In this document: positions 1,672-27,791 of the stretch, one piece after another
Layout of the letters: each line of letters starts with the position of its first letter
Numbering within the stretch: position 1 is the stretch's first letter
IMG/VR virus record: IMGVR_UViG_3300025669_000082
Span: 1 to 41,550 of that record
Reading direction: 5' to 3' (one strand)
Source: a virus
Length of the DNA stretch: 41,550 nt
Notes under the pieces: model-generated
The model's input: only the letters and a program-made list of their open reading frames with translations
What the model was told of the DNA's origin: nothing
Database searches by the model: none
Translations under genes and position numbers: made by a program

Positions 1672-2706
1672 ATGTCATTTACCCCCAAGTTTAAAAAAGT
1701 CCTAGACGAACTAGATACAATGGCTGCCCGTAAGGAGCCTATTGACGTATTAAGAGCCTTTTTTAGAGACAAGATGATCGAGCTAGGACCCAAGGAACGC
1801 ATAAACAACCTCTACAAGATAAGACCCAAAAGAGCAGTCCCAGGTGAACGTAGCAGATACATCTCTTTCAGAATGAACAAGGTACAGGACCACTACTTCG
1901 ACAATAGACAGAATAGAGATTCCGTACTTAAAATGAGACAGATTGGCCTAACAACCCTTTCATGCATAATAGGACTAGATATGTGCCTATTTAACATGGG
2001 AAACAATGCCTGCATAATGGCCCATGTCCTACCCAATGTACGCAAGTACTTCAGAATAACAAAAAACGCCTTCATACAATTCCAAAAAGACTGGGGAACA
2101 CTTTACCCAGTAACAAACACAGTAGATAACGTAGCAGAACTACACATCGGAGAAACAGGCAGTATAATGATGGTAGCCACAGAAACCAAGGGCCTAACCT
2201 TGGATTTTTTACATATAGCAGAAGCAGCCTTTGTACCCAACAGTAGAATAGAAGAGTCAATAGAATCAGTCCCTCTCTCAGGCCACGTAATAATGGAATC
2301 AACTCCAGATGGAGCATCAGGCATATTCTATGACCACTGGAGCAGCTTCCTAACAGACCCAGAAAGCTCCCTATTTGAATGCCATTTCTACCCCTGGTGG
2401 TGGCATTACCCCGAGAAACAGGATATCCCTTATCTCAAAAGACCAAGAGTATTCGTAGCAACAGAACAAGAAGAAGAACTAATGAAGAAGTACGAACTAA
2501 CAGATGACCACATAATATGGCGCAGAAACAAAATAAGCGAATCAGGAAACAACGAATCAGAATTCCTAAAGAAATACCCCGAAGACCCCATAACCTGTTT
2601 CCTCTCTGGTGCCCACTCAGTATTCGATTCAGACACCACTAGAAGCCTCTGGATAAACGCCCATGACCCAGCTTTCAGAGGTGACCTAAGGATAGCAACA
2701 AAATGA
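1672..2706 (+). CDS. terL: Terminase large subunit, ATPase part (split TerL)
   Basis: 344 aa, the DNA-packaging motor. A degenerate Walker A reads MRQIGLTT around residues 88-95. Walker B with the catalytic acid is LDFLHIAE (Glu184), and the coupling motif is MESTPDGASG around 208-217. The usual C-terminal nuclease is missing: the frame stops at 2704-2706, and the nuclease begins in the -1 frame at the overlapping ATGA. Most phage TerL proteins are one chain of about 450-600 residues. Here the motor and nuclease are either two polypeptides or are joined by a frameshift at AAAA just before the stop. Confidence 0.9.
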   Translation: MSFTPKFKKVLDELDTMAARKEPIDVLRAFFRDKMIELGPKERINNLYKIRPKRAVPGERSRYISFRMNKVQDHYFDNRQNRDSVLKMRQIGLTTLSCIIGLDMCLFNMGNNACIMAHVLPNVRKYFRITKNAFIQFQKDWGTLYPVTNTVDNVAELHIGETGSIMMVATETKGLTLDFLHIAEAAFVPNSRIEESIESVPLSGHVIMESTPDGASGIFYDHWSSFLTDPESSLFECHFYPWWWHYPEKQDIPYLKRPRVFVATEQEEELMKKYELTDDHIIWRRNKISESGNNESEFLKKYPEDPITCFLSGAHSVFDSDTTRSLWINAHDPAFRGDLRIATK

Positions 2707-3398
2707 AAATAGAATTTGAAACAAGAGCTTTCAAAGGAAAAGACGAAGAATTCATGGGCTGGCGCATCTACCAAAAACCCAAACCCCTCCATAAATATGC
2801 CATAGGAGTAGATGTAGCAGAAGGAAAAGGAAAAGACGCCTCATGTGCCCAAGTAATAGATTGCAACACAGGAGAACTAGTAGCAAACTACTGGTCCCCA
2901 GCCATAGACGAAGACAACTACGCAGCAGAGATATACAAAGCAGGCTACTACTATAATAGAGCAAGAGTAATAGTCGAAGAAAACAACAGCGGCCACGCCG
3001 TAATAACAAATCTCTCAGGAGCATACTCCAATAGCCTCAGATACCCCTACCTATATAAAAGACTAGAATACGACCAATACACCAAGAAAAAGACAAAAAG
3101 AATAGGCTGGCGCACCACAGGAGGTAATAAAGGAATACTAATCTCAAACCTAAGAGCAGCCCTAAGAGATGGCGAACTAGTAGTAAGAGACAAACACACA
3201 ATAAATGAACTAAGTACCTTTGTAGTAGATGAAAAGACAGGCAAACTAGGAGCCAAAGGCAATGCAAGAGATGACAGAATAATGGCCTTAGCTTTAGCTT
3301 GGGAGCAACTACTAGTAACAAGAATAGCCAAACACAATTCCAAACATAGCTACAACGAAAAACAAGAGTATGACGAAACTACAGGATTCCCCATTTAA
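2703..3398 (+). CDS. terL: Terminase large subunit, nuclease part (split TerL)
   Basis: 231 aa with the RNase H-like headful nuclease domain that cuts concatemeric DNA. Visible acidic residues are Asp37 in GVDVAEG, Glu92/Glu93 in IVEENN, and Asp190/Asp191 in ARDDRIMALALAW. It starts at ATG 2703, overlapping the ATPase stop (ATGA), so re-initiation by the same ribosome is the simplest expression route. Residues 1-30 look like the linker normally found inside an intact TerL, which argues for a split of an ancestral single gene. Confidence 0.88.
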   Translation: MKIEFETRAFKGKDEEFMGWRIYQKPKPLHKYAIGVDVAEGKGKDASCAQVIDCNTGELVANYWSPAIDEDNYAAEIYKAGYYYNRARVIVEENNSGHAVITNLSGAYSNSLRYPYLYKRLEYDQYTKKKTKRIGWRTTGGNKGILISNLRAALRDGELVVRDKHTINELSTFVVDEKTGKLGAKGNARDDRIMALALAWEQLLVTRIAKHNSKHSYNEKQEYDETTGFPI

Positions 3399-6448: not shown

Positions 6449-7435
6449 ATGATTAGCGCAGGATTCGCAGAAACAACCAGCACTTTAAGTGATAACTTAC
6501 ACAGTTATTACTTCAAACTGCTCTTAGAAAGTGCAGAAAAACAACTCAAACTAGTACCCTTAGGACAAAAGCTTCTTCACCCACGTAGAACAGGTAAAGA
6601 TAGCTACAAACTAAGGTACGGCAACATTGCTGATGATGTATCAGAACTCAGTGAAGGCGTAACCCCAACCGCCAGCACAATTGATACTAACAAATATACA
6701 GTATCCATGAAACAGTATGGTAAGTATATTGCAGTATCAGACTTCCTAAGTGCAACAGCAATAGATCCAGTACTAGAAGACATCTCCAGCAGACTTGGCT
6801 ACCATTCAGCCAAATCAGCAGATTCCATAGTCCGTGACGTAATAATCGCTGGCGCAACAACCAACATCCAATATGTCGGTTCAGGAATCGCAGCAGACAA
6901 TACCGTAACAGCAGCAGATGTATTCGTAGCTCAAGATGCTATTAAAGCTGTAAGAGTACTCAAAATGCAAGATTCTCCCGCTAGAGATGATGGCAATTAT
7001 ATCTGGGTAGTCCACGGTGGTATCAGTATGGACATCCAAAGCGACACATCCGCAGGAAGCTTCATCGAACTCAACAAGTACGTAGCAGGAATGGCCGACA
7101 AAGTCATGAAAGGTGAGATCGGTAGAGTCTACGGAGCAAGAGTCGTAGAATCAAATAACATCAGTTCAGTAGACAACACTAGTTCCATTGCTGTCTATAG
7201 ATCCTTGATGTTAGCCAAAGACCCATTCATCTTCACCTCATTTGATTCCGACTTCATTCAGATGAAGGTCAAACAGCTAGGCAGCGCAGGAACAGCAGAT
7301 CCTTTGGATCAGATTGCAACTTGTGGTTACAAGATGCAGTTCGGCTGTACCTATGTTGGTGGCTCTTTCAGCAACCACGAAGGCGCAAGCCCAGAGCTTG
7401 CCATTCAGATTCGTGGGGCTGTGACTGGAGGTTAA
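6449..7435 (+). CDS. Major capsid protein, N4-gp56-like
   Basis: 328 aa. The pattern LLESAEKQLKLVPLGQK, followed by a basic GKDSYKLRYG strand, ISVSMKQYGKYIAVSDF-like strands (here TVSMKQYGKYIAVSDFLS) and conserved SRLGYHSAKSADSIVRD, matches the N4-gp56 family of HK97-fold capsid proteins. AAAGGAG precedes the start. Codons are more mixed than in neighbours, consistent with high expression. A long hairpin follows the stop. Confidence 0.85.
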   Translation: MISAGFAETTSTLSDNLHSYYFKLLLESAEKQLKLVPLGQKLLHPRRTGKDSYKLRYGNIADDVSELSEGVTPTASTIDTNKYTVSMKQYGKYIAVSDFLSATAIDPVLEDISSRLGYHSAKSADSIVRDVIIAGATTNIQYVGSGIAADNTVTAADVFVAQDAIKAVRVLKMQDSPARDDGNYIWVVHGGISMDIQSDTSAGSFIELNKYVAGMADKVMKGEIGRVYGARVVESNNISSVDNTSSIAVYRSLMLAKDPFIFTSFDSDFIQMKVKQLGSAGTADPLDQIATCGYKMQFGCTYVGGSFSNHEGASPELAIQIRGAVTGG

Positions 7436-7442
7436 GTTAGAC

Positions 7443-7482
7443 ATTTAAGGCTGGGACCACTAAAATGGTCCCTCCCTTAAAT
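7443..7482 (+). terminator. Long hairpin after the capsid gene
   Basis: ATTTAAGG (7443-7450) pairs with CCTTAAAT (7475-7482), and inside it GGGACCA (7453-7459) pairs with TGGTCCC (7466-7472). That makes 15 pairs with one 2x2 internal loop. No U-tract follows. It could be a partial terminator or a 3' stabiliser that sets capsid mRNA above downstream genes. Confidence 0.65.
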
Positions 7483-7498
7483 ACCTAAAGGAAACTCA

Positions 7499-7912
7499 AT
7501 GCATATAATGAACTTCAGACACTACATTAGAAAATGTAACCCAGACATATTTGTAGATACGAACCATAGGGCTTACCCCTTCGGGGACGTAGAACATCCC
7601 ACCAGTGGCATGTACGTCACGAATAAGGAGGATACTAAGTTCCTTATGGGAGTATCAGCCGATGATGTACCTGAGTACACCCTAGCAAGCATAGACGTCT
7701 CAGAACTAAAAGAGCATGAATTAAAGAATCTAGAAGATACAGGTATAGACCTAGCAAATGAAAGAATAATATGGAGAGGTTGGAGAGCAATAATGAACAA
7801 CCTCATACGACAAGGTTACATAGAAAAGAAGAAAGCAGAAAAGGTATTTAATACCTATTTTGAACCCCAAAGAATACAGCTACCAAGACAGTACATAAAC
7901 AAGGAGATATAA
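7499..7912 (+). CDS. Hypothetical virion-module protein, 137 aa
   Basis: Starts at ATG 7499 behind AAAGGA; a second in-frame ATG lies 9 bases on. The N-terminus is Cys/His/Tyr-rich (HYIRKCNPDIFVDTNHRAY), the middle acidic and the C-terminus basic. It is unrecognised. Position just after the capsid gene suggests a head or neck accessory protein. Confidence 0.75.
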   Translation: MHIMNFRHYIRKCNPDIFVDTNHRAYPFGDVEHPTSGMYVTNKEDTKFLMGVSADDVPEYTLASIDVSELKEHELKNLEDTGIDLANERIIWRGWRAIMNNLIRQGYIEKKKAEKVFNTYFEPQRIQLPRQYINKEI

Positions 7913-7914
7913 AA

Positions 7915-9069
7915 ATGGCTTTTAACTCAAAAGACGACGTAGCCCTATCCATATCGGATGTTCAAATAGGTGCTGTAGAAGGTAAGGACGGAGTATCAGA
8001 CAGTAGATGGCTTATATCTGCCGCCAACACAGCAAGAGCAGTAGGAGACATGGTACTAGCTGTACAAGTACTAGACGAAACAGGAGCAGTCCTATCAGCA
8101 GGCGGGGCAGCATCAACAATTGCCGACGGAGCAGACGTAACCCAAGGTGCCAAAGCTGATAACAAAGCCTCCACCACAGACGCAACTCCCATAAGCATTG
8201 TAAGCATCCTAAAACAACTCTCCTACATGGCCCAGAACCCAGCGTCTAGGGCTGTTACTGGAACTTTTTTCCAAGTTACGCAGCCTATAAGCCTAGCTTC
8301 AGCACAAGTAGCATCAGGAGCATTTGCATCAGGTGCCTTGGCAACTGGCTCAATAGCAGCAGGTGCGGTAGCAGCGGGGGCTTTCGTATCAGGTTCTATC
8401 CTAGATGGAGCCATAGCAACAATGGGTGCATTAGCAGATGCAGCAGTCACAGCTACAGATACCACAGAGGTATCGGTTATCTCCCTATTAAAACAAATAT
8501 CTAAAATGGAGCAATCTCCTGCAACGAGAGCTGTTACTGTCATAGATGGCGGTGACATAACTCAAGGTGCTAAGGCAGACGCTAAAAACTCAGCTACGGA
8601 CACAACCGCAATAAGCATCATGCAAGTCCTAAAACAGATCTCATTCTCCATGCAAGCCAATAGTGGCAATACTGAAATAATGGATGATTGGGATGATGGA
8701 GACAAATGCAGAATAACCCCCGTAGCAACAGCAGTAGTAACCTACGGTTCAGACACCCTATTCGATAATGATGCTGATAACACTGCCCAACAGTTAAAAG
8801 CATCTTCAGGAAACTTATATAAATTAGACGTATACAATAGCAATGCCACAGTATCATTCATACAACTATTTGATCTAGCAGTAGGAGATGTAACAGTAGG
8901 CACCACAGTCCCAAAGTACGTAGTAATGATACCAGCCCAAGGCGCAGCCAGCATAGACTTCAACATACCAATGTCCTTCTCAACAGCAATAACATACGCA
9001 GCAGCAACCACACCCACAGGCAACGGTGACCCCACAGTAGGTTTAAGTTTTAGCGCAATATATAAATAA
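7915..9069 (+). CDS. Repeat-containing virion surface protein
   Basis: 384 aa. Three related units at about residues 71-114, 170-207 and 211-247 share the pattern TQGAKAD-x-K-x-S-x-TD followed by a helix ISI...LKQIS. Between the first two is a low-complexity Ala/Gly/Ser stretch (ASGAFASGALATGS) with five-residue periodicity. The C-terminal about 120 residues look like a beta-rich head. TQGAKAD-type units occur in phage head-fibre or decoration proteins, so a capsid surface role is likely but unproven. AAGGAG precedes the start. Confidence 0.7.
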   Translation: MAFNSKDDVALSISDVQIGAVEGKDGVSDSRWLISAANTARAVGDMVLAVQVLDETGAVLSAGGAASTIADGADVTQGAKADNKASTTDATPISIVSILKQLSYMAQNPASRAVTGTFFQVTQPISLASAQVASGAFASGALATGSIAAGAVAAGAFVSGSILDGAIATMGALADAAVTATDTTEVSVISLLKQISKMEQSPATRAVTVIDGGDITQGAKADAKNSATDTTAISIMQVLKQISFSMQANSGNTEIMDDWDDGDKCRITPVATAVVTYGSDTLFDNDADNTAQQLKASSGNLYKLDVYNSNATVSFIQLFDLAVGDVTVGTTVPKYVVMIPAQGAASIDFNIPMSFSTAITYAAATTPTGNGDPTVGLSFSAIYK

Positions 9070-9077
9070 GGCCCATT

Positions 9078-9173
9078 ATGTCAGGATTCTCCACATATGT
9101 CCCCTTACCAGAGGTAGGTACATCAACAGCAGGCAAATCAATAAAAGTAGGGCTAGAAATTCAAGAAATATAA
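9078..9173 (+). CDS. Short hypothetical peptide, 31 aa
   Basis: ATG at 9078 with AAGG six bases upstream, stop TAA 9171-9173. The product begins MSGFSTYVPLPEVG and ends KVGLEIQEI. It sits in the gap between two surface-protein genes, and its first four residues match those of the next gene (MSGF). Confidence 0.45.
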   Translation: MSGFSTYVPLPEVGTSTAGKSIKVGLEIQEI

Positions 9174-9194
9174 TAACAAACAAGGAGAATTAAC

Positions 9195-10160
9195 ATGTCA
9201 GGCTTCTACTACGATACAACTACCCCAACCCCAACATTCAGTTGGGCCTTAGCAGCCGGTACTTTAACCGTATCAGCTGAAGGTATCTCTAAGATGACCA
9301 TGGAGAAACAAGGCTCCCCAGGAGAAAAGATAGAACTAGACATATCAGGTATGTCATGGACTATCGACGATGACAACGGCTCTGACGAGTTCGTAGGACG
9401 TATGGGAACCACTGCTTCTAGAGCATGGGGTGATGCCATGCCTTACTTTGTATATCTTATTAACTACGACAATACTCCAGGTAATGTACGTATGGGTATC
9501 TCAAGAGACCCCACAGCAAGAGTAACCCCAGCCTCAACAGACGGCATAGGCAGTAATGGAGGAGGAGCAGCAGCTACCCCAGCCCAAACTAACTTCTTTG
9601 TAGCCTATACTAATAACACCACCCTTAACTCCAAACCCTGCAAACTTATTGATGTAGGTCTATCAGCTATCTGTGATGATTCAGCGGGTGGTATATGGAC
9701 CTTCACTGCTCCAGCAGCAGGTGATTGTCTAGAAAACACCTTCTCTACTGAATGGACATTTCCACTAGGACAGAACGGCAATGAAGCTGGCAAATATTAT
9801 AACACCGCTACGCCAACTACGAACCTAGCTTTTGCCGACTATGCTGCTGAATATAGACTACAACGCAACGGCAGAATAAACTACCGAGTCACTCTTAGCA
9901 ATCAATCAGCAGCAGGGAATAGAACTGAAGAACTACACCTGTTTTTGCCAGCCGTACCTGTAACCGGAACCCTAATGCAATCACATGGTGCTGTAAGGGC
10001 AAGAATAACCAATACTTATATGTTTACCGATATGTCCCAATACCAAACAAATGCTTATGCTAACATTGGAAAAGTAGCTTCAACTGGTGGGTATACCGAT
10101 GCCGATTTCTCAGGTGCCAGTGATTATGTCTTTGGGGAAATAGAGTACACTGCATTCTAA
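9195..10160 (+). CDS. Hypothetical structural protein, 321 aa
   Basis: Beta-rich, Gly/Thr/Asn-rich protein with few charged helices (starts MSGFYYDTTTPTPTFSWALA). A Gly-rich linker near residue 120 (GIGSNGGGAAATP) separates two halves. No family recognised. Strong AAGGAG and placement after the repeat protein support a decoration or fibre role. It is followed directly by a membrane protein and a rhomboid protease. Confidence 0.7.
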   Translation: MSGFYYDTTTPTPTFSWALAAGTLTVSAEGISKMTMEKQGSPGEKIELDISGMSWTIDDDNGSDEFVGRMGTTASRAWGDAMPYFVYLINYDNTPGNVRMGISRDPTARVTPASTDGIGSNGGGAAATPAQTNFFVAYTNNTTLNSKPCKLIDVGLSAICDDSAGGIWTFTAPAAGDCLENTFSTEWTFPLGQNGNEAGKYYNTATPTTNLAFADYAAEYRLQRNGRINYRVTLSNQSAAGNRTEELHLFLPAVPVTGTLMQSHGAVRARITNTYMFTDMSQYQTNAYANIGKVASTGGYTDADFSGASDYVFGEIEYTAF

Positions 10161-10170
10161 AGGACCTTAT

Positions 10171-10545
10171 ATGACAACATACATAGAACGCCTTATAAGG
10201 TGGATCTACCCTAAAGGTAACTGGGGAAGAGAGAACCCTGTCTCAGGAAAGCAATCATGGCTTTGGGGACAGATGTGGGTACATCTCTTCATTGGGGTAT
10301 GCTCACCCCTTATAGCACTACCAATCGTCGCGTGGTGGCCCTTGTGTGGCCTCTCAATAGCATTCCTTATCGGCCTTATAACCCCTTTATGGAGAGAATT
10401 CCACGTTGATAAGCACCCCTTTAAGGATCTTTACGTAGATACTCCTGAGGGCATAGACTGTAGAAGTGATATATTGAGTTGTTGGGTGGGTAGTGTGTTA
10501 GTTCTAATACCAATGAGTATTATGTGCATATTGATGGGGATATAG
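10171..10545 (+). CDS. Membrane protein next to the rhomboid protease
   Basis: 124 aa with two or three hydrophobic segments: about residues 29-46 and 48-62 (separated by AWWPLCG) and about 105-124 (SVLVLIPMSIMCILMGI). Between them is a soluble loop with His/Asp/Cys (REFHVDKHPFKDLYVDT). AAAGGA precedes the start. The rhomboid gene begins two bases after the stop, so the two are almost certainly co-expressed. It could be a substrate or partner of that protease, or an unrelated envelope protein. Confidence 0.75.
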   Translation: MTTYIERLIRWIYPKGNWGRENPVSGKQSWLWGQMWVHLFIGVCSPLIALPIVAWWPLCGLSIAFLIGLITPLWREFHVDKHPFKDLYVDTPEGIDCRSDILSCWVGSVLVLIPMSIMCILMGI

Positions 10546-10546
10546 T

Positions 10547-11158
10547 ATGATACTAAAAAGAATAAATAACGCCGTACAGGGCATCCTCAGGACTCTCAGG
10601 GGCATGTTTAGCAAGGACATCCTACCAGCAAAGTATGTACCAATGACACAGGTACTAATACTGATAAACGTCCTAATATATGTACTACAGACCTTAAACC
10701 CTGATGTAACAGCCACATTCGTAATGCGAAGCAATGTATGGTATTCATACCTCACTGGATGCTTCCTACATGGTAGTATGAGACATTTAATGGGTAATAT
10801 GCTGTTCCTGTCATTTATCTTCCCCCCAATAGAAAAGAAATACGGAAGTAGATTCATATTCCTAGCATATTGTATAACAGGCATATTCGGAAGTGCCCTA
10901 TTCGCATACTTCCTCCCTCATGCCACAGCACTAGGAGCAAGTGGCAGCATATTCGGATTAATGCTAATATGGATATTCCACAACCTAATGGAAGGTAGAA
11001 TACTCCTAGTATTCCCAGCTCTATTCTACTTCATGATGGAAGGTGTAAGATCAGGATATGGCCTAGTAGTACCTGATGGAATAGCTCACTTAGGACACTA
11101 CGGCAGTGGTTTGGGAGCCTTCTTCTTAATTCCCTATATGATATGGAAAAGGAAATAA
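10547..11158 (+). CDS. Rhomboid-family intramembrane serine protease
   Basis: 203 aa with about six hydrophobic segments and all hallmark rhomboid motifs. HGSMRHLMGN (His75, His80, Asn84) has the same spacing as His145/His150/Asn154 of E. coli GlpG. GASGSIFG holds the likely catalytic Ser132, and AHLGH holds His181. Rhomboids cleave transmembrane helices inside the bilayer using this Ser-His pair. Length and motif spacing indicate an intact enzyme, not a relic. GGGGAT precedes the ATG. Its place between surface-protein and head-tail adaptor genes is unusual. Possible roles are cutting a host membrane protein, processing the neighbouring membrane protein, or excluding other phages; none is shown by sequence. 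Confidence 0.9.
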   Translation: MILKRINNAVQGILRTLRGMFSKDILPAKYVPMTQVLILINVLIYVLQTLNPDVTATFVMRSNVWYSYLTGCFLHGSMRHLMGNMLFLSFIFPPIEKKYGSRFIFLAYCITGIFGSALFAYFLPHATALGASGSIFGLMLIWIFHNLMEGRILLVFPALFYFMMEGVRSGYGLVVPDGIAHLGHYGSGLGAFFLIPYMIWKRK

Positions 11159-11159
11159 C

Positions 11160-11873
11160 ATGGCCCTTACAAGACTTCAACTTAAAAACACAATAGCAAT
11201 ATCCCTAGAAAGACCAGACGACACAGCCTTCCTAACCTTCCTAGATGGCAGAATAGATCAAATGCTATTCTTCCTATTCGACATGCACGACTGGAACTGG
11301 AAACATAAAGATGGAGCTTTCAACACCGTAGCCACCACAGAAGCCTATGATCTATCCTCAACCAGCACAGACATAAGATCCTCCCAAGACTTAGAAGTAC
11401 TATGGGACTCCACAAACAAAAGATTCATAAACAAAGTAGAACTACGTACAGTTCGTAAACAATACCCAGAAGGCTCCCAAGCAGGCAAACCAACTAGATA
11501 TGCTCCTTGGGGAAGTAAAGAGATATATCTAGATAACATCCCAGATGACACATATGCAATGAAATACCTGTACCTAGCCAAAGCCACCCTACCAACCGCA
11601 GACGGTGATGACCTAGAAACAGTATGTGGAGTACCAGACTACTGCCACTACCTACTAGAGAAACTAGTACTAGCAGAAGCAATGATAATAGATAACGATA
11701 GTCGCAGAGACAATCTCCTAATAGAAATAAATAAAATATGGAAAGTAAAAGCAGTAAATGCCGACATGAAACATTTAGAATCCACAGCAAGATTTAAATT
11801 CTGGGCAGAAGAAATACAACCACAAGGAACCACCTACGATGATTATCTAAGGCATGTATGGTGGGATGAATGA
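11160..11873 (+). CDS. Head-to-tail adaptor protein (P22 gp4-like)
   Basis: 237 aa. It opens with ALTRLQLKNTIAISLERPDD, then an aromatic segment (FLFDMHDWNWKHKDG), a beta region with YDLSSTSTDIRSSQDLEVLW, and a C-terminal helical bundle. This is the arrangement of podovirus adaptor/tail accessory proteins that sit under the portal and extend the channel. The start has AAAGGA and is one base after the rhomboid stop. Assigned from overall pattern and position. Confidence 0.65.
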   Translation: MALTRLQLKNTIAISLERPDDTAFLTFLDGRIDQMLFFLFDMHDWNWKHKDGAFNTVATTEAYDLSSTSTDIRSSQDLEVLWDSTNKRFINKVELRTVRKQYPEGSQAGKPTRYAPWGSKEIYLDNIPDDTYAMKYLYLAKATLPTADGDDLETVCGVPDYCHYLLEKLVLAEAMIIDNDSRRDNLLIEINKIWKVKAVNADMKHLESTARFKFWAEEIQPQGTTYDDYLRHVWWDE

Positions 11874-11921
11874 TAGCAACACACTAACAACATTAAATTT
11901 TAGGGATGACAACATACATAT

Positions 11922-13841
11922 ATGCCAACCATAGCCAGACAATACATACCACAAAGAAGCTTTGAGAATGGAGTAGATAACACTACCCCAATAGAATCTC
12001 CTGAGATAAAGAATACTCTCTCAGAGTGTCTAAATGGTATAATATCAGGTTCAGACATAATAAAGACAAGACCAGGATTTACCGAAATAACAGCAACTAA
12101 ATCAGGATATATTATAAGAGAAGGGATAGAATACTCTAAATCAGATGGCACCAAAGAACAGCTAGTATATTTAGAAGCTACAGTCCCAACAGGCACTAGT
12201 GGAATACTAGCAAGGGTTGTATCTGACACTCTAGTAGACATAACAACAGGCTTACCAGATGGAATAAAACCATGCCTAATACAAGCAGGAACCTTACTAT
12301 TCATATTCACAGGAGAGACAGACCTAATATACGATGGATCAACAACTAGACAAATAGGAATAACAGAACCATCAGTAGCCCCATCAAAACATTCCCTAAC
12401 CTCAGGAAACCTAAACGATGGTGGTTTCTATGTCTACGTATATAAATACCGTAACTCAGTAACAGGAGCACAATCATCCCCAAGCCTCCCATCAGGAACA
12501 ATAACAGCAGGAACCCAAGCACTAGGAACCAATGGCATTAAAATACACCTAACCCCAGGTGACTCATCATTAGCTGATAAGATAGACATATACCGCACAA
12601 CAAGCGGAGGAACCATATACTTCTTTGAAGGCTCCGTAGACATTGATGATACAACATATACTTCCCAAACAACAGATACAGGTTTAGGCTCCCAACTAGA
12701 ACTAGATGACTCAAGACTCCCCGAAGCAGCCCAATTCGCAGTACTAACAGATAACCGCTTATTCGTAGGAGGCTTCAAATCCAACAAAAGTCGCATCCAA
12801 TACTCAAAGATCGGCATAAACGGTTCAATGTTTGAATCATTCCAAATATCAGACATAATAGACTGCAACGCAAACGATGGTGAAATACTAACAGGCTTAG
12901 GAAAACTAGGAACCAAAGTAGGTGTACTAAAACAAACAAAAGCAGGCAAAATACTAACCCTAGAAGCATCCCTCGGAGGCTTAGAAACAGGTGGATCACG
13001 TAAATACATCTACAAAGAACTAAGCGATAAATGCACCACAACCAACCACCACACCATATTCACACTAGGCGATAACATGGGCTGGCTAGGCAGAGACAAC
13101 ATATACATAACAGATGGCTTTGACATAAAACCAATAGCCAACAGAATACGAAACACCGTAAGATCACTAAACCACAACCAAGCATATAAGTTCAGTGCCT
13201 ACGAATATATCTACACCCAACAATTAATATTATCAGTAGTACGTAGTGGACAAACAGAACCAGACTACCAACTAGTATGCCACTATGGACATGCAGCAAA
13301 CCTAGCATGGACAATGTTCGGACCAGGCCCCAACAGCAGCACCCACCCAGGACTACCAATGAGCTGCATATGGTCAGCCACAATAAACAACCTAATAGAA
13401 CCCTACTTCGGCAGTAGTAACAACAATGGCAAAGTATACCAATACGCTCTAGGCATAAACGATGACACAGACCCCATATACTTCCTAATAAAAGACCAAT
13501 GGGAAGCAGGCAAAGATGCAATGGGAAAGAAGTCATTCCAATCCATCAAATACCTAGCCACAACCCAAGCAGCTTCCCCAAACAACACCCTAACAAACAC
13601 CTGGGAAGAAGACGGAAAAGAACTAATAGTAAAATCAGAAGTAGCCACAATAGCCGTAGCCACCAAATGGGACGCTGAAAAGTGGGGCACTTTCACCTGG
13701 GCAGGCAAAGGCTACTCCCTAATAAAGTTCTTCCCAAACAGAAAAGCCTACATAGGAAGATTCGGCTGTTACAACAGCACAGTAGATTGCCCAATATCAA
13801 TAAAATCAATGAGACTCCTATACAGACCAATGTCAGAATAA
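11922..13841 (+). CDS. Tail stabilisation/hub protein (P22 gp10-like)
   Basis: 639 aa, beginning ARQYIPQRSFENGVDNTTP, with repeated blades such as GTLLFIFTGETDLIYDGSTT and VLTDNRLFVGGFKSNKSRIQYS. Such beta-propeller-like proteins plug the tail below the adaptor in P22-type podoviruses. It lies directly after the adaptor gene, as in that group. AGGG is 16 bases upstream, an unusually long spacing; an out-of-frame ATG at 11906 follows that AGGG, so the start context is weak. Codon use is heavily A/C-ended. Confidence 0.65.
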   Translation: MPTIARQYIPQRSFENGVDNTTPIESPEIKNTLSECLNGIISGSDIIKTRPGFTEITATKSGYIIREGIEYSKSDGTKEQLVYLEATVPTGTSGILARVVSDTLVDITTGLPDGIKPCLIQAGTLLFIFTGETDLIYDGSTTRQIGITEPSVAPSKHSLTSGNLNDGGFYVYVYKYRNSVTGAQSSPSLPSGTITAGTQALGTNGIKIHLTPGDSSLADKIDIYRTTSGGTIYFFEGSVDIDDTTYTSQTTDTGLGSQLELDDSRLPEAAQFAVLTDNRLFVGGFKSNKSRIQYSKIGINGSMFESFQISDIIDCNANDGEILTGLGKLGTKVGVLKQTKAGKILTLEASLGGLETGGSRKYIYKELSDKCTTTNHHTIFTLGDNMGWLGRDNIYITDGFDIKPIANRIRNTVRSLNHNQAYKFSAYEYIYTQQLILSVVRSGQTEPDYQLVCHYGHAANLAWTMFGPGPNSSTHPGLPMSCIWSATINNLIEPYFGSSNNNGKVYQYALGINDDTDPIYFLIKDQWEAGKDAMGKKSFQSIKYLATTQAASPNNTLTNTWEEDGKELIVKSEVATIAVATKWDAEKWGTFTWAGKGYSLIKFFPNRKAYIGRFGCYNSTVDCPISIKSMRLLYRPMSE

Positions 13842-16519: not shown

Positions 16520-17101
16520 ATGGACAACAATACACTACTAAAAGGCACCTCAGTACAGTTACTTCCATTTGAAACAAAACATTGGTCAGACATAGCCAGA
16601 TGGTTCTATGATAAAGACTACAAAGAATTCTTTAGACAATTCACCAAAGTACTTACCGAAGAAGACTTCCAGAACTACCCCAAAGCAGTGGGTGGAACAA
16701 TATTCATGGTCCACTCATTACTAGACAACAACATAATAGGCTTAGTCCAAGTTATACCTTGCTTTAAAAAGAACAAAGGAGCATATATAGGAGTAATAAT
16801 AGACAAAGCCTCCCAAAAGAAACACCTCCCATCAGAAGTAATGTTAATACTATTAGATCACCTATTCAATAGGGACGGATATAACAAAGTAGTAATCGAA
16901 ATACTAGAATCAAACGAAGGTCTAAAAAGAGTACTAGAAAAGACAGGCTTCTACAAAGAAGGCAAATTACTACAAGAATGCTTCATGGATGGTAGATTCA
17001 GAAATGAACTAAGATATTCAATGAGCAATTACTATTTCAACAAATTCAAATCAAAACTTGAACAGGAGTACAAACAATGGGCGCATTCATTAAAGAAATA
17101 G
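16520..17101 (+). CDS. GNAT-family N-acetyltransferase
   Basis: 193 aa resembling RimJ/RimL-type GNAT enzymes, which move an acetyl group from acetyl-CoA to an amine. Visible: an early strand VQLLPFETKHWSDIARWF, the acetyl-CoA-binding region about residues 90-125 (GVIIDKASQKKHLPSEVML), and the C-terminal NEGLKRVLEKTGFYKEGKL typical of this fold. GGAG precedes the start. It sits among virion genes, so it may modify a virion protein or a host target; substrate unknown. It overlaps the next gene by 25 bases. Confidence 0.8.
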   Translation: MDNNTLLKGTSVQLLPFETKHWSDIARWFYDKDYKEFFRQFTKVLTEEDFQNYPKAVGGTIFMVHSLLDNNIIGLVQVIPCFKKNKGAYIGVIIDKASQKKHLPSEVMLILLDHLFNRDGYNKVVIEILESNEGLKRVLEKTGFYKEGKLLQECFMDGRFRNELRYSMSNYYFNKFKSKLEQEYKQWAHSLKK

Positions 17102-22950: not shown

Positions 22951-23226
22951 ATGTGGTCAATATCTAACATATTAGGCATAATTGGAGCAGTCTTGGGTAG
23001 TGGAGCTTTGAGTTCCATTATTACAAACTGGTTCAATAAGCGTAAGGCTGGTGCTGATACAGATAGTGTAATAGTTAAAAATATTATGGATTGGGCTGTA
23101 GAATTGACTAGTAGGATAGATAAATTAGAAGTCCAATTAGTAGAGAAGGATAGACAAATAGATGAATTGGTGGAACAGGTACATAAACAAGATCTATTAA
23201 TACAGAAGTTACAGAAGGGGGAATAA
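22951..23226 (+). CDS. Membrane-anchored coiled-coil protein
   Basis: 91 aa: one hydrophobic segment at about residues 5-27 (SNILGIIGAVLGSGALSSII) followed by a charged heptad-like helix (LEVQLVEKDRQIDELVEQV). GGGGGG sits just before the ATG. The layout is found in small phage envelope or lysis proteins; holin or antiholin cannot be excluded. Confidence 0.65.
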   Translation: MWSISNILGIIGAVLGSGALSSIITNWFNKRKAGADTDSVIVKNIMDWAVELTSRIDKLEVQLVEKDRQIDELVEQVHKQDLLIQKLQKGE

Positions 23227-27411: not shown

Positions 27412-27504
27412 TTATCTACTTATCCCCCATATTACCACCACTGTAAGATCTATGAGTAACTTAATTGCTGTCCAGAATATACATATGGTTTTTATATCTG
27501 TCAT
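27412..27504 (-). CDS. 30-residue membrane peptide between the spanin genes
   Basis: ATG overlaps the i-spanin stop (ATGA); the o-spanin ATG follows one base after its stop. Sequence starts MTDIKTICIFWTAIKLLI and ends VVVIWGISR, one hydrophobic segment. The tight coupling suggests a lysis-related accessory such as a small holin or antiholin. Confidence 0.5.
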   Translation of the reverse strand: MTDIKTICIFWTAIKLLIDLTVVVIWGISR

Positions 27505-27791
27505 TTAAAACACTCCTTATCGAAGGGATTAGAGCTAAGTATGCAGCTTGCTTCCTTATCTGATAAAGATCTACTAACTCTATCCTTTAACTCACTACCT
27601 TTCCTGAATAACAACTCTACATCTTCCTCATGTTGTATCTGATACTCAACAATAACCCTATTCATCTTAGCCTCACAGGACTGCTTACCTTTGTTGTACA
27701 GATATATCCCAGATGATACTATAAGTAAGATACATGTCAAAGGCAACCAAGCTCTCTTCAAAAAGGCTATTACTGTTAGATAACCAATCAC
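27501..27791 (-). CDS. Inner-membrane spanin candidate (Rz-like)
   Basis: 96 aa, GTG start at 27791 behind GGAGG, overlapping the recA stop (GTGA). One N-terminal membrane segment (LPLTCILLIVSSGIYLY, about residues 16-33) is followed by a charged periplasmic helix (VEYQIQHEEDVELLFRKG) and Cys near the end. This is the i-spanin architecture, and it is adjacent to a lipoprotein gene. Confidence 0.65.
   Translation of the reverse strand: MIGYLTVIAFLKRAWLPLTCILLIVSSGIYLYNKGKQSCEAKMNRVIVEYQIQHEEDVELLFRKGSELKDRVSRSLSDKEASCILSSNPFDKECFK

What the first reader, a model, noticed from the sequence alone, without database searches (positions are those of the whole stretch)
10547..11158. Intact rhomboid intramembrane protease inside a phage virion operon
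All three rhomboid motif sets are present with near-GlpG spacing (His75/His80/Asn84, Ser132 in GASG, His181 in AHLGH) and about six membrane segments. It is two bases from a small membrane protein gene (10171-10545) and one base from the adaptor gene. A protease that cuts within membranes, made late with virion proteins, suggests cleavage of a host envelope protein, maturation of its neighbour, or exclusion of other phages. I know of no established role for rhomboids in podoviruses.
Basis: partly seen in the sequence, partly recalled or inferred. Interest (0 to 1): 0.88.

Follow-up and report, generated by a model that had tools for sequence, protein, structure and literature searches.

The report
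Membrane-cutting protease carried by podovirus
A small virus of bacteria carries, among the genes for its shell and tail, an apparently intact enzyme that cuts other proteins inside membranes; such enzymes are nearly universal in cells but have no described role in phages, and this one is kept intact by three related virus lineages.

Summary
Window 10547-11158 encodes a 203-aa rhomboid (Pfam Rhomboid, E 1e-20; confident AlphaFold2 model, VIA-align Z 19.6 to E. coli GlpG). The catalytic pair is Ser132/His184. His75, His80, Asn84 and Ser132 are also kept.

The gene lies between a small membrane-protein gene and an SU10-type adaptor gene. Three diverged lineages (rhomboids about 60-65% identical) keep that order and the catalytic residues. 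It occupies an accessory slot between head genes and adaptor: a more distant relative has an empty slot, another podovirus has glycosyltransferases there, and a phage sharing the membrane gene lacks any rhomboid on its 44-kb contig. Rhomboids also occur in unrelated phages, so a phage rhomboid is not unique; no paper found here gives one a function.

Best reading: an active, late-made rhomboid in the host inner membrane, more likely cutting a host membrane protein than its neighbour. Identity is near certain; activity probable; the target is inferred only.

The parts
10547..11158 (+). rhomboid intramembrane serine protease, 203 aa, six predicted membrane segments
   Evidence: Pfam PF01694 E 1.3e-20; AlphaFold2 pLDDT 91.7; GlpG fold Z 19.6
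10769..10798 (+). codons of His75, His80, Asn84 (GlpG His145, His150, Asn154; motif HxxxxHxxxN)
   Evidence: invariant in 80/80 cellular rhomboids and 3/3 phage lineages; aligned to GlpG
10940..10942 (+). codon of catalytic Ser132 in GASG (GlpG Ser201)
10171..10545 (+). small membrane protein, 124 aa, about three membrane segments; fast-evolving neighbour with conserved His38, Glu76, Asp80, Asp96, Asp100, Gly107
   Evidence: no Pfam or PHROG match
7915..9069 (+). first ORF of the accessory slot, probable virion surface protein (inferred); absent from L112
9195..10160 (+). second ORF of the accessory slot, probable virion protein (inferred); shared with rhomboid-free G005 at 69%
7499..7912 (+). 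small ORF that marks the left edge of the slot; its L112 homologue lies 8 bases from the adaptor
11160..11873 (+). SU10-type adaptor, right edge of the slot
   Evidence: Pfam PF24175 E 1.1e-9

Best explanation
The gene makes a catalytically competent rhomboid serine protease (dyad Ser132/His184) that inserts into the host inner membrane. It is translated late, from the head-tail operon, and is carried in an accessory slot between the head genes and the adaptor gene. I propose that it cuts the membrane anchor of a host membrane protein late in infection, for example a receptor-linked or defence protein, or membrane proteins that would hinder assembly, superinfection control or lysis. Shown: family, fold, residues, synteny, accessory nature. 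Inferred from position: late expression. Inferred: activity, membrane location in infection, and the class of target.
For: Family and fold. All active-site residues kept in three diverged phage lineages and aligned with GlpG. Purifying selection: window versus L009 rhomboid pN 0.226, pS 0.518, dN/dS about 0.3. Gene order small membrane ORF - rhomboid - adaptor in all three lineages, with start/stop contact or overlap. Rhomboid identity (59-64%) is close to that of the adaptor (66-73%), so it has stayed with this clade while its upstream neighbours were replaced or diverged. Accessory slot: empty in L112, filled with glycosyltransferase and other modification genes in ctQWt234. In phages DLP3 and DLP5 the rhomboid also stands beside sugar- and envelope-type genes. 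Known bacterial rhomboids cut membrane proteins in quality control (PMC7232013, PMC7231995, abstracts).
Against: No activity, expression or target data. L112 and G005 lack it, although L112 is an 8-kb contig and neither record is shown to be complete. A late gene would be late for counter-defence. Sitting in an accessory slot does not reveal the target. The rhomboid fold also occurs in inactive members (iRhom, derlin) that bind without cutting; here the residues are intact, which argues against that reading.
Confidence: 0.5

Rival explanations
1. The rhomboid processes a phage membrane protein, most simply its upstream neighbour (10171-10545), or another phage-encoded single-span protein such as those at 22951-23226 or 27501-27791.
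For: The neighbour precedes the rhomboid in 3 of 3 lineages, in near or overlapping reading frames. It keeps invariant His, Glu and Asp residues. The 22951 protein has one Gly/Ala/Ser-rich segment and is kept in the L009 phage at 73%.
Against: The neighbour is present without any rhomboid in G005, whose contig is 44 kb, is only 27-31% identical between rhomboid phages, and is predicted to span the membrane several times. No homologue of the 22951 protein was found in the parts of the L003/L004 phage read here.
Confidence: 0.25
2. The protein is a passenger gene, captured from a host and folded like a rhomboid, with no significant role in the infection cycle.
For: It lies in a variable slot that is empty or differently filled in relatives.
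Against: Active-site residues and about 60% identity are kept over three lineages whose synonymous sites are far diverged, with dN/dS about 0.3 where it can be measured; a neutral gene would decay.
Confidence: 0.1
3. A non-proteolytic, iRhom- or derlin-like rhomboid that binds or moves membrane proteins without cutting them.
For: phmmer ranks the inactive rhomboids iRhom1 and iRhom2 above GlpG by sequence; the fold is shared with both groups.
Against: Ser132, His184, His80, Asn84 and the GASG motif are all present and invariant in the clade.
Confidence: 0.08

Closest known systems
GlpG, E. coli / H. influenzae rhomboid protease
   Same: six-helix fold, Ser/His dyad, HxxxxHxxxN motif, Ser-His spacing
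   Different: about 17% identity; no cytoplasmic domain of GlpG size; far below the GlpG equivalog cut-off (31.9 against 250 bits); phage-encoded
Cellular rhomboids of PF01694 (22-33% identical to the window's in alignment A5)
   Same: all catalytic residues
   Different: the podovirus copies form a separate, fully supported clade on a long branch; parent lineage not resolved
Rhomboids of other phages: DLP3 and DLP5 (Stenotrophomonas), a group of large tail-sheath phages (L121-L126, L136), BFVD entries including Podoviridae sp. ctsfx1 and Siphoviridae sp. ctLqe90
   Same: phage-borne rhomboid fold
   Different: other genomic settings where checked (beside sigma factor and HNH genes, or sugar genes); DLP copies have GASAG and lie on a very long branch
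iRhom and derlins
   Same: fold
   Different: inactive (names; general knowledge); the catalytic residues are present here
Rhombosortase (TIGR03902)
   Same: weak profile match, E 3e-6
   Different: 27.3 bits against a cut-off of 84

Membership tests
Rhomboid superfamily (PF01694) | profile score above curated cut-off | tested here: met
   74.5 bits against 22.6
Rhomboid superfamily (PF01694) | six-helix rhomboid fold | tested here: met
Active rhomboid proteases (MEROPS S54, named from memory) | catalytic Ser in GxSG and His in the last membrane helix | tested here: met
   Ser132, His184
Active rhomboid proteases (MEROPS S54, named from memory) | oxyanion-hole His and Asn (GlpG His150, Asn154) | tested here: met
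   His80, Asn84
Active rhomboid proteases (MEROPS S54, named from memory) | intramembrane cleavage of a substrate | not testable with these tools
   needs a bench assay
GlpG equivalog (TIGR04239, PRK10907) | score above equivalog cut-off | tested here: not met
   31.9 against 250 and 24.5 against 335 bits
Rhombosortase (TIGR03902) | score above equivalog cut-off | tested here: not met
   27.3 against 84 bits
YfiM/DUF2279-like family, for the upstream membrane protein | profile similarity to E. coli YfiM | tested here: inconclusive
   hhalign E 0.075, probability 0.7%; no Pfam match

The most novel reading that the evidence does not exclude
A podovirus clade uses its own rhomboid, made with its virion proteins, to cut a specific host membrane protein in every infection: phage-directed intramembrane proteolysis, for exclusion, counter-defence or lysis timing, of which no example is described in the papers found here.
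Probability: 0.3. Interest if true: 0.8.

Novelty: new member of a known kind. Interest (0 to 1): 0.45.

Why it matters
Rhomboids are found in nearly all cells, yet a 2025 review of the family mentions neither phages nor viruses (PMC12615303). A phage clade that keeps an intact rhomboid next to its tail genes gives a small, testable case: one gene, one Ser132Ala change, and a membrane proteome to compare. If it has a host target, intramembrane proteolysis would join the known ways phages change the host envelope.

Tried and rejected
His181 as catalytic His: rejected. An early worry that L003 had lost the catalytic His (Tyr at the 181 column): dissolved, because Tyr is the commonest residue there in cellular rhomboids. 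Acinetobacter phage MD-2021a 'aarA' as a phage rhomboid: rejected, the contig carries chromosomal genes such as ppk, mtgA and oxyR. Membrane neighbour as YfiM/DUF2279-like, a resemblance recalled from memory (His...Glu..Asp...Asp..Gly): not significant; its model is too poor to use (pLDDT 64.9) and its fold search gave nothing significant. Origin of the phage rhomboid: not resolved; it groups with other viral-contig rhomboids at 92/85 support only, on long branches, and the cellular set was chosen by a sequence pattern, so it is biased. Paper searches for a phage rhomboid function: none found beyond the annotation of DLP3; the library holds open-licence papers only. Adaptor and membrane gene gave no match in 50,697 phage records. 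Promoter and terminator scan of 7300-12200 gave no more sites than shuffles, so no internal transcription start is claimed. Biopython's dN/dS routine failed on most pairs and was replaced by my own Nei-Gojobori count.

Full report
Setting. The window is a 41,550-base IMG/VR virus record. It encodes an SU10-type portal, major head protein, terminase pieces and SU10-type adaptor, a GH108 endolysin, an SLT-domain protein, DNA polymerase A, RecA and RuvC. It is a podovirus by gene content. The nearest GenBank head proteins are about 30-37% identical and include Bacillus podoviruses such as Pascal and Page. The adaptor and the small membrane protein have no match in 50,697 phage records.

The observation. 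The ORF at 10547-11158 is a rhomboid: Pfam E 1.3e-20, six hydrophobic segments, a confident AlphaFold2 model from 44 aligned sequences (pLDDT 91.7, pTM 0.85) and a GlpG fold (Foldseek; VIA-align Z 19.6, rmsd 2.8 over 167 residues). The spacing to its neighbours is as reported.

The correction. I aligned the three phage rhomboids with 80 cellular ones: His75, His80, Asn84 and Ser132 are invariant, the His184 column is His in all 78 that have a residue there, and the His181 column is mostly Tyr or Trp. An alignment that includes E. coli GlpG pairs His184 with His254, Ser132 with Ser201 and His181 with Asn251. The dyad is therefore Ser132/His184. This matters because one relative (L003) has Tyr at 181 and could have been misread as a dead enzyme.

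Conservation. Relatives in viral contigs fall into three lineages: the window (with an identical fragment, L002), L009, and L003 with L004-L006, whose rhomboid genes are identical to that of L003. All hold a rhomboid, 59-64% identical to the window's (62-65% by tblastn), all between a small membrane ORF and the adaptor. In L009 the rhomboid start overlaps the membrane ORF. The window-L009 comparison gives pN 0.226 and pS 0.518, a dN/dS of about 0.3; other rhomboid pairs are too saturated at synonymous sites for a firm ratio.

An accessory slot. In L112, with head protein 60% and adaptor 55% identical, the homologue of the small ORF 7499-7912 ends 8 bases before the adaptor and the whole stretch 7915-11158 is missing. 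In podovirus ctQWt234 (head protein 24% identical) the corresponding place holds glycosyltransferase, methyltransferase and NodB-like genes. In G005 (43,985 bases) the second slot gene and the membrane gene are present at 69% and 59%, followed by a 320-aa ORF without a match to the window's adaptor, and no rhomboid is found anywhere on the contig. So the rhomboid is an accessory gene that has nevertheless been retained beside the adaptor in this clade, while its upstream neighbours were exchanged or diverged (membrane gene 27-31% between rhomboid phages).

Other phage rhomboids. A profile scan of viral contigs returned 25 further contigs with a rhomboid, nearly all with the catalytic residues; some may be cellular flanks or misassigned contigs and were not checked one by one. 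A checked group has a sigma factor and an HNH-type gene next to the rhomboid, with a tail-sheath gene nearby in L121 and L136; L138 and L143 carry topoisomerase II genes nearby. DLP3 and DLP5 carry an annotated rhomboid beside sugar-type genes, and BFVD lists several phage rhomboids. Phage rhomboids are thus recurrent. In a tree the podovirus clade is fully supported and falls with some of these viral ones at 92/85, on long branches, with a biased cellular sample, so I draw no conclusion on origin.

How it most likely works. Established knowledge: active rhomboids cut unstable transmembrane segments, and bacterial ones do so in membrane-protein quality control (PMC7232013; PMC7231995, abstracts). 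From the intact dyad I infer activity; from the operon I infer late synthesis; from membrane topology I infer inner-membrane location. I favour a host membrane protein as target over the adjacent membrane protein, because that protein exists without the rhomboid in G005 and has diverged strongly between rhomboid phages. This preference is weak: adjacency in 3 of 3 lineages could still reflect a functional pair. No sequence evidence here chooses between exclusion, counter-defence, clearing of membrane proteins and lysis timing.

Verdict. A real, probably active rhomboid in a podovirus virion operon; a new member of a known enzyme family in an unusual setting, with an unknown target.

Noticed in passing
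window 22951-23226: 91-aa late protein with one Gly/Ala/Ser-rich membrane segment and a coiled-coil-like tail, 73% identical in the L009 phage; a candidate lysis-module or rhomboid-substrate protein.
   Followed up: partly
window 27501-27791, minus strand: 96-aa protein with one N-terminal membrane segment and a charged tail, spanin-like in layout, lying next to recA on the minus strand.
   Followed up: no
window 1672-2706 and 2703-3398: Terminase large subunit appears as two ORFs; L010 and L011 also match the two pieces one after the other, so the layout may not be an error of this record alone.
   Followed up: partly
L003 5836-7104: The homologue of 9195-10160 is split in L003 by an ORF of about 105 aa between its two halves.
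   Followed up: no
window 16520-17101: GNAT acetyltransferase inside the virion operon, present in L003 at 58%; ctQWt234 has an annotated L7/L12 acetyltransferase in a similar place.
   Followed up: partly
CAKLQH020000010.1 (L113): The record named Acinetobacter phage MD-2021a carries ordinary chromosomal genes at this place, so its 'phage' rhomboid is most likely a mislabelled bacterial gene.
   Followed up: yes
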